This document shows positions 7,690 to 10,382 of a stretch of 64,000 bases of DNA, one piece after another (positions within the stretch are counted from its first letter, which is position 1; each line of letters starts with the position of its first letter). The stretch lies in the NCBI GenBank assembly GCA_949948895.1, contig CATLHE010000001.1:124001-188000 (forward strand). The letters are read 5' to 3'. The notes under the pieces are model-generated. The model did not search any database, was not told the DNA's origin, and saw only the letters and a program-made list of their open reading frames with translations. The translations under genes were made by a program, and so were the position numbers. This stretch comes from an uncultured Christensenella sp. GTDB taxonomy: Bacteria > Bacillota > Clostridia > Christensenellales > Pumilibacteraceae.

Positions 7690-7956
7690 ATGCAAGCAAT
7701 TATAAATGCGATCATGCCCATCGTCTCGATGCTTGGCGTTGACGGATTCGCGGCAGTCGGCGCGGGTCTTGCCGCGCTTGCGTGTATCGGCGCGGGTCTC
7801 GGTATGGGTATCTCTACAGGTAAGGCGGTAGAGGGCATAGCGCGTCAGCCGGAAGCGCATAAGCAGATACGGTCTACGCTGTTCATAGGTTTGGCGTTTT
7901 GCGAAACGACGGCTATATACGGCGTGTTCATAGCGATCATGCTGTTGGTAATGTGA
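7690..7956 (+). CDS. atpE: F-type ATP synthase subunit c
   Basis: Subunit c (88 residues) is the rotor hairpin. Helix 1 is glycine-rich ([12 protein letters not shown]), the loop is ARQPEA, and the ion carrier is Glu72 in FCETTAIYG. Thr73, Thr74 and Tyr77 align with Ser66, Thr67 and Tyr70 of the Na+ site of Ilyobacter tartaricus, but the Gln32 position is Met39 here. The coupling ion therefore cannot be read from sequence alone. GGAGG lies 6 nt before the ATG, the strongest ribosome site of the operon, as expected for the most abundant subunit. Confidence 0.96.
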
Positions 7957-7980: not shown

Positions 7981-8496
7981 ATGTTTATTTCGGCAAACAT
8001 ATTTGAAGCATTGGGGCTTGATTGGCGTTCGATGCTGTTTTATTTGGGCAATCTGATAATACTGATTGCCGTATTGGTGCTTGTGTTGTACAAGCCCATT
8101 AAAAAAATGCTCGCAAATAAGCGAAAGAGCATTCAGGAAACTTTCGAGGAAAACGAAAAGCTCAAAACGGAAAGCGAACAGCTTAAAGCGGAATACGAAA
8201 AAAGATCGGAAGAGCTTAAATCCGAGAGCGCGCGCATTTCCGCCGAAGTCGCCAAAAACGCGCAGGACCGTGCCGACGCCATAGTAGCGGAAGCTCAGGA
8301 ACAGGCTAAAGTAATAGTGGACGCCGCAAAAAAAGACGCGGTGTATCAAAAAGAACAGCTTAAAAACGAGTATCGCGACAGCGTGAACACTCTCGCCGTG
8401 CAAGTCGCCCAAAAATTATTGGAGCGAGAAATTTCGGATGCGGACAATTCCGCACTTATAGAACAAGTCCTTTCCGATTGGGAGGACGGTGATTGA
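7981..8496 (+). CDS. atpF: F-type ATP synthase subunit b
   Basis: Subunit b (171 residues) is the peripheral stalk. One transmembrane helix near the N-terminus (about 19-37, LFYLGNLIILIAVLVLVLY) is followed by a long charged coiled coil (about 45-150). The length is normal for a stand-alone b subunit, so the missing N-terminal domain of delta is not fused here. Its TGA overlaps the ATG of the delta-alpha fusion (8496). Confidence 0.95.
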   Translation: MFISANIFEALGLDWRSMLFYLGNLIILIAVLVLVLYKPIKKMLANKRKSIQETFEENEKLKTESEQLKAEYEKRSEELKSESARISAEVAKNAQDRADAIVAEAQEQAKVIVDAAKKDAVYQKEQLKNEYRDSVNTLAVQVAQKLLEREISDADNSALIEQVLSDWEDGD

Positions 8497-10374
8497 TGAA
8501 AGACAAGACATGCGAAACGGCGGTAATCACAGTCACTTCCGCCGCGCCGCTTTGCGACGTCGATAAAAAACGTGTGGAGTCCGTGTTCTCGGCTAAGCAT
8601 AAAGGCGAGAAGACGGAGTTTGTCTATAATATAGACAAAGCGCTTATCGGCGGTATACTCGTCGTGGACGGCGATAAATATTACGACGGAACGGTCAGAT
8701 CGCAGATAGACAAGATCGATCCCGATTTTGTTATGAGCGAAAAGTTTGTCGCGTCCGCTACCGCGTCGCTTACAGAAAAGGGCAAAAAGCGTAAGCGCAA
8801 GAAAGGCGCGACTGCGGAAGCGGTTTCGGAAATCGAACCTCAAGCGACAGCCGAGACCGCGGAACAGATCAAAAAACGCGTAGACGCGGAGCTTAAAAAA
8901 AGCGTGTCGTCGTTTGAAAAGAGTTACGATGTGCGGCGCGCGGGGCGTATAGAGTTTTGCGGCGACGGCGTAATACGCGCAAGCGGGCTGTCGGACGCCG
9001 AGTACGGCGAAATGCTGCAAATAGAAAACGGCGCGCAAGCCATAGTTTTGAGTTTGGAAAACGACGGTGTGGGCGCGATAGTCTTGGACGATGAGGACAA
9101 GGTTTCCTCGCACATGCTTGTAAAGACAACGGGTATGATAGTTTCCGTGCCCGTCGGCAATAAGCTGCTCGGCAGGGTCGTCAATCCGCTCGGCAAGCCC
9201 ATTGACGGCTTGGGCGAGTTCGAAGTGGATAAGTACAGACCTATAGAAGCTTCCGCGCCGCCCATCAAAGACAGAGACAAAGTGAATACGCCGCTTTCGA
9301 CGGGTATACTCGCAGTGGACGCGCTCGTTCCCATAGGAAGAGGTCAGCGCGAGCTTATAATAGGCGACAGGCAGACGGGTAAAACGTCCATAGCCGTCGA
9401 TACCATAATCAACCAGAAAGGCAAAGACGTGATATGCATTTATGTGGCGATAGGTCAAAAATCTTCGTCGGTCGCGTCGGTCGTAAACACACTTACAGAG
9501 CACGGCGCAATGAGCTATACCGTAATGGTGTGCGCCACAGCGCGCGACAGCGCGCCGCTTCAGTATATCGCTCCGTATGCCGGTTGCGCCATCGCGGAAG
9601 AATTTATGTATGCGGGCAAAGACGTGCTTATCATATACGACGATCTCAGTAAGCACGCAGTCGCATACCGCGCAATGAGTCTTTTGCTCAAACGCCCGCC
9701 GGGACGCGAAGCGTACCCCGGCGATATATTCTATCTTCACTCGCGGCTCTTGGAGCGCGCCGCAAAACTCAATAAGGAGTGCGGAGGCGGGTCCATGACC
9801 GCTCTGCCCATAGTGGAGACGCTTGCGGGTGATATTTCGGCATACATTCCGACCAATATAATTTCCATAACCGACGGTCAGATATATTTGGAGAGCAATC
9901 TGTTCAACGCGGGCACGCGCCCCGCTATAAACGTCGGACTTTCCGTTTCGCGCGTCGGCTCGGGCGCGCAAAGCCGCGCTATGAAAAAAGTTGCGGGTAA
10001 GCTCAGGCTCGATCTATCGCAGTATCGCGAGCTTGCGGTGTTTGCTCAGTTCGGCGCCGATCTCGACGAGACCACGCTGCGGGCATTGGAACAAGGCAAG
10101 CGCGCTACGGAAGTATTGAAGCAGGACGTGCACTGTCCTATGAGCGAAGCGCATCAGATAGTATTGCTGTATATCATAACCAAAGAGCTGTTAAGATCGA
10201 TACCGCCGACCCGCGTCGCGGATTTTGCGGATAAGTTTATCAAATACTTCGACGTAAACCATGCCGACGTATTAAAAAGCTTGGCGCGCGGCGAAGAAGT
10301 CACCATGGATATGGGCATTACCATCGAGGAGGCTGTGGAAACGTTCTTGCTGTTCTTCTTAAAGGACGGCGGCA

Positions 10375-10382
<8 letters not shown>
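8496..10382 (+). CDS. atpA: F-type ATP synthase alpha subunit with N-terminal delta C-terminal-domain fusion
   Basis: This 628-residue protein is about 125 residues longer than a normal alpha subunit. Residues ~8-75 match the C-terminal domain of delta (AtpH): VTSAAPL, then DKALIGGILVVDGDKYYDG followed by TVRSQ. A lysine-rich linker follows (~80-130, with KGKKRKRKKG), then a complete alpha: beta-barrel GDGVIRASGL, Walker A GDRQTGKT (290-297), YDDLSKHAVAYR, and the arginine-finger region AGTRPAINVGLSVSRVGS. The N-terminal helical domain of delta, which normally grips the alpha N-termini, is missing and no atpH lies elsewhere in the operon. GGAGG lies 10 nt before the ATG. The reading frame is continuous, so this is a fusion and not a frameshift. 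Confidence 0.93.

What the first reader, a model, noticed from the sequence alone, without database searches (positions are those of the whole stretch)
8496..10382. ATP synthase alpha subunit carrying the C-terminal domain of delta; no N-terminal delta domain
Seen: residues ~8-75 match the delta C-terminal domain (DKALIGGILVVDGDKYYDG), followed by a Lys-rich linker and a full alpha subunit. atpF is normal length and the operon has no atpH. Known: delta is one copy per F1 and its N-terminal helical domain caps the three alpha N-termini, while its C-terminal domain holds the b stalk. Inference: three delta C-domains per F1, each covalently tethered, would replace the usual clamp and change stator stoichiometry. 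Mycobacteria have a b-delta fusion, but I know of no characterised delta-alpha fusion.
Basis: partly seen in the sequence, partly recalled or inferred. Interest (0 to 1): 0.88.

Follow-up and report, generated by a model that had tools for sequence, protein, structure and literature searches.

The report
ATP synthase half-delta fused to alpha
This bacterium has lost half of a clamp protein of its ATP-making rotary motor and joined the other half to a subunit present in three copies, a design that engineers recently built to give such a motor extra struts and a lower gear, and which many of its relatives share.

Summary
Window 8496-10382 encodes 628 aa: a delta (OSCP) C-terminal domain (Pfam E 3.8e-12, model positions 97-168 of 172), a Lys-rich linker and a complete alpha subunit. 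The genome shows no other delta and no delta N-terminal domain (controls). It is not an assembly error: in the window's family the 40 of 74 genomes with alpha are the same 40 with delta, C-domain only, fused to alpha in 29 and stand-alone in 11. The same architecture was engineered in Bacillus PS3 (PMC12229609; PDB 9jc1); that enzyme gained peripheral stalks and a-subunits (about two by SDS-PAGE, up to three by cryo-EM) and doubled its H+/ATP ratio. Its authors noted natural fusions in Acidaminococcus fermentans and two UniProt entries, so the window gene is a new member of a type noticed in print but, as far as searched, not characterised natively. New here: N-domain-less delta is widespread in this order (apparently that of Christensenella), fusion or fission recurred (at least 13 changes on an alpha tree), and relatives carry b-delta-C-alpha triple fusions and tandem C-domains. 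Most likely mechanism: up to three b2 stalks per F1 and a higher ion/ATP ratio; inferred, not measured.

The parts
8496..10382 (+). delta C-domain-alpha fusion gene, 628 aa plus stop; start ATG overlaps the atpF stop by one base (TGATG), gggagg at 8480-8485 as likely Shine-Dalgarno
8502..8717 (+). delta/OSCP C-terminal domain, residues 3-74
   Evidence: Pfam PF00213 positions 97-168, E 3.8e-12; AlphaFold2 model and Foldseek; 67% mean pairwise identity in 16 sequences of the genus
8718..8858 (+). variable Lys/Ala/Glu-rich linker, residues 75-121
   Evidence: 28% mean pairwise identity in the genus; block pLDDT 50-73, with short helices predicted at 76-80 and 82-94
8859..8942 (+). retained N-terminal helix of alpha, residues 122-149
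   Evidence: single predicted helix; TIGR00962 match starts at residue 129, model position 7
8943..10379 (+). alpha subunit barrel, nucleotide-binding and C-terminal domains
   Evidence: PF02874, PF00006, PF00306; TIGR00962 732 bits, cut-off 484
7981..8496 (+). atpF, b subunit, 171 aa, ordinary length
   Evidence: PF00430 E 9.8e-21
7690..7956 (+). atpE, c subunit
   Evidence: PF00137
7000..7677 (+). atpB, a subunit
   Evidence: PF00119
10375..11232 (+). atpG, gamma subunit
   Evidence: PF00231
11229..12635 (+). atpD, beta subunit
   Evidence: PF00006
12632..13012 (+). atpC, epsilon subunit; only the beta-sandwich domain matches
   Evidence: PF02823

Best explanation
This is the only delta and, as far as found, the only F-type alpha of the organism, made as one polypeptide. 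SHOWN from sequence: the delta N-domain, which normally sits on the threefold axis of F1 and, by PMC12229609, limits the enzyme to one stalk, was not found in the genome, and the b-binding C-domain is joined to alpha. INFERRED: each F1 therefore carries three C-domains, each able to seat a b2 dimer, so the enzyme assembles with more than one peripheral stalk (up to three) and one a-subunit per stalk. More ions then pass per turn of the c-ring, which lowers the ion-motive force needed for ATP synthesis; that would suit a cell with a weak gradient (an Rnf/Nqr-type gene is present). Fusion and N-domain loss: about 0.98. Multi-stalk mechanism: about 0.6, the figure given below.
For: Domain and architecture. 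No N-domain; the N-domain profile finds 8 of 8 held-out whole-delta genomes at E <= 4.1e-23 and gives no hit below E 0.1 in 32 N-domain-less genomes. The C-domain is conserved and the linker is not, 67% against 28%, so the domain is under selection. PS3 engineered to this design gained a and b by SDS-PAGE (2.2x and 1.8x), showed up to three stalks by cryo-EM, and H+/ATP 5.8 against 3.0 (PMC12229609). A natural F-type enzyme with two a, four b and two delta per three alpha is in the PDB, by chain counts, for Chloroflexus aurantiacus: 18 entries with 36 a and 72 b chains, 6 entries with 12 delta and 18 alpha chains. Relatives: in 5 genomes of family f11 a b-type N-terminus, delta C-domain and alpha form one chain, which would put one b anchor on every alpha; in 2 genomes of f15 tandem C-domains come with a b whose C-terminal segment is repeated. 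Starts that could make a separate alpha are not enriched. Rnf/Nqr-type gene in the genome.
Against: No stoichiometry of a native enzyme of this type was found. In the engineered enzyme cryo-EM showed 0/1/2/3 stalks in 15/51/26/8% of particles, mean 1.26, so single-stalk particles were the commonest; its authors blame dissociation. The window's linker (about 44 aa; the sampled fusions range from about 0 to 54) is longer than in the PS3 construct, called short, so its C-domains need not sit as in PS3. Eleven family genomes keep the C-domain as a free protein, so covalent linkage is not essential. G204 has tandem free C-domains with an ordinary b. The genome also has a V/A-type ATPase I subunit, so the role of the F-type enzyme is unsettled.
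Confidence: 0.6

Rival explanations
1. One stalk only. The fusion tethers F1 to a single b2 and a single a; the two other C-domains are spare. The fusion saves a gene and prevents loss of the clamp.
For: Single-stalk particles were the commonest class in the engineered enzyme (51%). The long, variable linker in this genus lets a C-domain reach b from many positions. One atpF and one atpB gene in the operon.
Against: No N-domain that would break the symmetry was found. Engineered SDS-PAGE and H+/ATP data give about two a-subunits on average. Triple b-delta C-alpha fusions in relatives would put a b anchor on every alpha.
Confidence: 0.27
2. An unrelated protein, or the alpha N-termini themselves, has replaced the delta N-domain on the threefold axis, so stoichiometry stays at one stalk.
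For: The alpha N-terminal helix is kept and predicted as one helix of 28 residues (122-149) although its usual partner is gone; three such helices could cap F1.
Against: No extra gene inside the operon. The profile finds recognisable N-domains only, so a replacement would be missed.
Confidence: 0.08
3. Mixed product: internal initiation or proteolysis also gives free alpha, so that on average about one C-domain remains per F1.
For: 21 of 77 fused genes have an in-frame start with a Shine-Dalgarno match of 4 or more bases in the linker region; in the window it is one GTG with 4 bases, and three related f24 genes (G121, G237, G096) share a GTG near the same place with 4-6 bases.
Against: Such starts are rarer there (0.69 per 100 codons) than inside alpha (1.42), and I see no place shared across families. 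Proteolysis cannot be tested here.
Confidence: 0.04
4. Assembly error or decaying gene.
For: The genome is a draft of 24 contigs.
Against: Same fusion in the 19 of 20 genus genomes in which alpha was found, and conservation of the C-domain.
Confidence: 0.01

Closest known systems
Engineered Bacillus PS3 deltaDeltaN-alpha F1Fo (Ueno et al. 2025, PMC12229609; PDB 9jc1)
   Same: Same domain order: delta residues 105-178 joined to the N-terminus of alpha, N-domain deleted. Sequence match to the delta part E 6.8e-5; Foldseek E 6.5e-3, TMq 0.38.
   Different: Engineered, short linker, epsilon C-domain removed; here natural, linker of about 44 residues, in a lineage where the fusion is usual.
Natural delta-alpha fusion of Acidaminococcus fermentans (and UniProt G4Q3K6, A0A1I2C5T3) noted in the Discussion of PMC12229609
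   Same: For A. fermentans: delta fused to alpha, delta N-domain missing, by the paper's statement; the two UniProt entries are said to show similar features.
   Different: Another organism; its sequence was not examined here; the paper gives no native characterisation.
Chloroflexus aurantiacus ATP synthase (PDB 9itj and sister entries)
   Same: Natural F-type enzyme with more than one stalk, by PDB chain counts: two a, four b, two delta per three alpha.
   Different: Delta is a separate chain of 157 aa, two copies, not fused to alpha. Its paper was not found in the library.
Mycobacterial b-delta fusion (PDB 7jg5_d and others)
   Same: A delta C-domain carried on another stator subunit.
   Different: Fused to b, not to alpha; one b-delta chain per entry (40 entries, 40 chains).

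Membership tests
F-type ATP synthase | a, b, c, alpha, beta, gamma, epsilon genes together | tested here: met
   adjacent genes on one strand
F-type ATP synthase, canonical | separate full-length delta (N-domain plus C-domain) | tested here: not met
   controls
deltaDeltaN-alpha fusion type (engineered PS3; A. fermentans) | delta C-domain joined in frame to the N-terminus of alpha | tested here: met
deltaDeltaN-alpha fusion type | no delta N-domain in the genome | tested here: met
   genome 94.5% complete, so a missing piece is not fully excluded
Multi-stalk F1Fo | more than one b2 and a-subunit per F1 | not testable with these tools
   needs purified enzyme
Multi-stalk F1Fo | raised ion/ATP ratio | not testable with these tools
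   needs proteoliposome assays

The most novel reading that the evidence does not exclude
[quoted passage not shown] They arose by loss of the delta N-domain followed by repeated fusions of its C-domain to alpha; some lineages made one stalk per alpha obligatory by fusing b, delta C-domain and alpha into one chain.
Probability: 0.45. Interest if true: 0.88.

Novelty: new member of a known kind. Interest (0 to 1): 0.68.

Why it matters
F1Fo is commonly described as having one peripheral stalk and one a-subunit. An engineering paper concluded in 2025 that the delta N-domain enforces this and proposed that nature may have dropped it. The lineage found here has dropped it, keeps the C-domain under selection, has joined it to alpha probably several times over, and appears to include the cultured genus Christensenella, so the proposal that ATP synthase gearing can evolve through stalk number can be tested in native enzymes.

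Tried and rejected
Considered and rejected: assembly error or chance (same fusion throughout the genus); a hidden atpH or lone N-domain; internal initiation of a short alpha (it finds weak starts in 21 of 77 genes, fewer per codon than inside alpha). The hits that seemed to span delta and alpha are mostly two adjacent genes: the long alpha frame appears only in L001 (the window gene itself), L002, L003 and L041 among the loci where my alpha motif was found; some loci had no motif match. L041 is a different case, a full-length delta fused to alpha. OSCP matches that start before position 84 in the lists and are over the cut-off read through a stop codon into atpF or, once each, similar upstream sequence, and are not N-domains in an open frame; the exceptions are whole deltas. 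G011 has two extra matches below the cut-off (positions 12-131, E 0.0018, in a 2215-codon frame; 75-145, E 0.0047, in a 461-codon frame), taken as chance and not followed.

Led nowhere: the mixed alignment A4 placed free C-domain fragments wrongly and was not used for folding; literature searches for Christensenella ATP synthase delta and for the Chloroflexus enzyme gave no paper; one search listed 15 of 79 papers, of which only PMC12229609 concerned stalk number in one enzyme by its listing. The pdb_via library was not on hand.

In the f15 test I chose the two segments by eye before shuffling one of them.

Full report
OBSERVATION. The 628-residue ORF at 8496-10382 sits between atpF and atpG. 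Pfam finds the OSCP family at residues 3-74, positions 97-168 of 172, E 3.8e-12, then the three alpha domains; NCBIfam calls it atpA with the alpha match starting at residue 129. Residues 1-126 match solved delta chains, best PS3 delta, E 1.1e-5. An AlphaFold2 model of residues 1-151 on 38 rows (mean pLDDT 79.9, pTM 0.47) shows a confident domain (block pLDDT 90-95 for residues 11-70), a weak linker and a helix at 122-149. Foldseek's 36 matches with E up to 0.001 are all chains of ATP synthase entries; those that also appear are named delta, OSCP or b-delta; the engineered fusion 9jc1 comes further down at E 6.5e-3. The start ATG overlaps the atpF stop by one base.

NO OTHER DELTA. Own genome: one OSCP match, this one. 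A profile of 19 delta N-domains from the order finds nothing at E <= 10 in the own genome. In a controlled run it finds 8 of 8 whole-delta genomes not used in the profile at E <= 4.1e-23, and in 32 N-domain-less genomes only five scattered hits at E 0.12-0.33.

NOT AN ARTEFACT. Of 74 genomes in the family, 40 have an OSCP match at E <= 0.01 and the same 40 have alpha. In open frame each match over the cut-off covers the C-domain only; G011 has two further matches below the cut-off. By frame length 29 are fused to alpha (19 of 20 in the window's genus, G000 included; the twentieth, G018, 78% complete, shows neither) and 11 are stand-alone frames of 71-93 codons. In 16 of the 19 fused sequences of the genus the C-domain is 67% identical on average, the linker 28%, the alpha helix 57%, the rest of alpha 83%.

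HOW WIDESPREAD. In the order, 186 of 396 sampled genomes match OSCP at E <= 0.001. 33 of the listed matches are whole delta; the other listed ones start at position 84 or later, or start earlier only by running through a stop codon (the list was cut). I fetched loci for many of the listed N-domain-less genomes and for 12 of the whole-delta ones. Of the 132 alpha rows in the first tree, 77 are fused (70 single, 5 triple, 2 tandem), 39 stand-alone (one of them tandem), 15 whole and 1 whole-and-fused; four rows (L022, L041, L060, L079) are outgroup loci. This is not a random sample. Outside the order, 44 genomes were rerun, nearly all chosen for weak OSCP scores. Twenty were fetched: 18 carry a C-domain-alpha fusion (my own C-domain profile finds the domain in 17, several weakly, up to E 0.006; in G525 it rests on Pfam, E 1.3e-5), one has a delta with a shortened N-domain fused to alpha (G665), and one an unfused delta of 153 aa whose N-terminal part my profile does not recognise (G808). 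This sample gives no prevalence; whole delta leads the list in the class.

NAMES. Its genus-mates G218, G164 and G146 fit C. timonensis, Catabacter (now Christensenella) hongkongensis HKU16 and C. intestinihominis in rounded size and contig number. I infer that genus g49 is Christensenella and that the window lies in its order. All six g49 loci examined are fused. The window's own genus is unnamed; two genus-mates equal in contig length to records titled uncultured Clostridia bacterium.

HISTORY. On the alpha tree (132 rows, quick method, SH-aLRT only) fused and stand-alone states need at least 13 changes among 116 N-domain-less rows; 20 label shuffles gave 25-38. With 156 rows the count is again 13 among 123; well-supported branches alone force 8 changes for the label fused against all other rows and 7 for stand-alone. 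N-domain presence needs 1 change in the first tree and 2 in the second. The root is not inferred, so fusion cannot be told from fission, operons may have moved between lineages, and a stand-alone row (L187) sits among the whole-delta rows.

TELLING VARIANTS. Five genomes of f11 encode one chain of a b-type N-terminus, delta C-domain and alpha (739-754 aa); the three operons looked at upstream also hold a separate short b gene of 142-143 aa. The b part is divergent: of three tested, Pfam gives 24 bits in one (below the cut-off of 28) and nothing in two, but hhalign of the five N-termini against 14 b subunits gives 97% probability, E 9.8e-11, over 47 membrane-proximal columns. G330 carries this gene and also a whole delta. 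In f15 two tandem C-domains precede alpha, and b has a C-terminal extension resembling its own end (0 of 2000 shuffles as good in each of two genomes, segments picked by eye). G204 has a stand-alone tandem C-domain with an ordinary b, so the two duplications do not always go together.

MECHANISM. In PMC12229609 (abstract, passages and sections 6, 9, 10 and 13 read) deletion of the delta N-domain and fusion of its C-domain to alpha in PS3 gave 2.2 and 1.8 times more a and b, H+/ATP 5.8 against 3.0, and up to three stalks by cryo-EM (0/1/2/3 stalks in 15/51/26/8% of particles). The authors conclude that the N-domain restricts stalk number and note natural fusions in A. fermentans and two UniProt entries. 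A natural F-type enzyme with two a and four b is also deposited: PDB chain counts for Chloroflexus aurantiacus; I did not see its paper. The window enzyme meets the sequence conditions for multiple stalks, but its stoichiometry is not known. The long linker and the many single-stalk particles in the engineered sample keep the single-stalk rival alive. Searches for 'multi-stalk' with 'ATP synthase' and for Acidaminococcus with ATP synthase and peripheral stalk returned only that paper; most subscription papers and preprints are not held. PMC5709465, where I read passages only, reports delta-b fusions; those passages mention no protein fusion of delta with alpha.

PHYSIOLOGY. The genome has an Rnf/Nqr-type D/B subunit (E 4.3e-60) and a V/A-type ATPase I subunit (E 3.1e-19). 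A low-gear F-type enzyme would fit a weak Rnf-type gradient, but this is conjecture.

VERDICT. Observation confirmed; the fusion type is already noticed and engineered, so the window gene is a new member of a known kind. Its wide distribution, the stand-alone C-domains and the triple and tandem variants were not met in the literature searches, which cover open-licence papers only.

Noticed in passing
L173 4237-6456 (-), L174 4340-6604 (-), L175 4292-6535 (-), L176 2430-4670 (+), L229 1000-3243 (+): b-type N-terminus, delta C-domain and alpha in one chain of 739-754 aa; L173-L175 have a second short b gene upstream; G330 (L175) also has a whole delta elsewhere.
   Followed up: partly
L171 3519-5561 (-) and 5554-6303 (-); L172 3322-5352 (-) and 5345-6046 (-): Two tandem delta C-domains before alpha, with a b subunit whose C-terminal segment is repeated.
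   Followed up: partly
L181 2840-3235 (+): Stand-alone protein of two tandem delta C-domains (131 aa), with an ordinary b.
   Followed up: partly
L041 7698-9773 (+): Firmicutes UBA3932: full-length delta (N- and C-domain) fused to alpha, 691 aa, a separate kind of fusion.
   Followed up: partly
L293 656-2695 (+): Delta with a shortened N-domain fused to alpha, 679 aa; six genomes of family f48 show the same frame length; it branches at the base of one fused clade.
   Followed up: partly
34 of 74 family genomes: No F-type alpha and no delta found, among them 12 of the 43 genomes that are at least 90% complete and at most 5% contaminated.
   Followed up: no
L288 526-2442 (+): The fusion frame begins with three near-identical copies of a repeat of about 21 residues before the delta C-domain; the true start was not determined.
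   Followed up: no
window 7690-7956: The c subunit carries ETTAIY around the likely ion-binding glutamate (recalled motif); whether it binds H+ or Na+ was not worked out.
   Followed up: no
G006, G004, G077, G126, G134 and others: OSCP matches run on upstream through a stop codon, so the end of the upstream gene (atpF by position) weakly resembles the delta N-domain profile.
   Followed up: no
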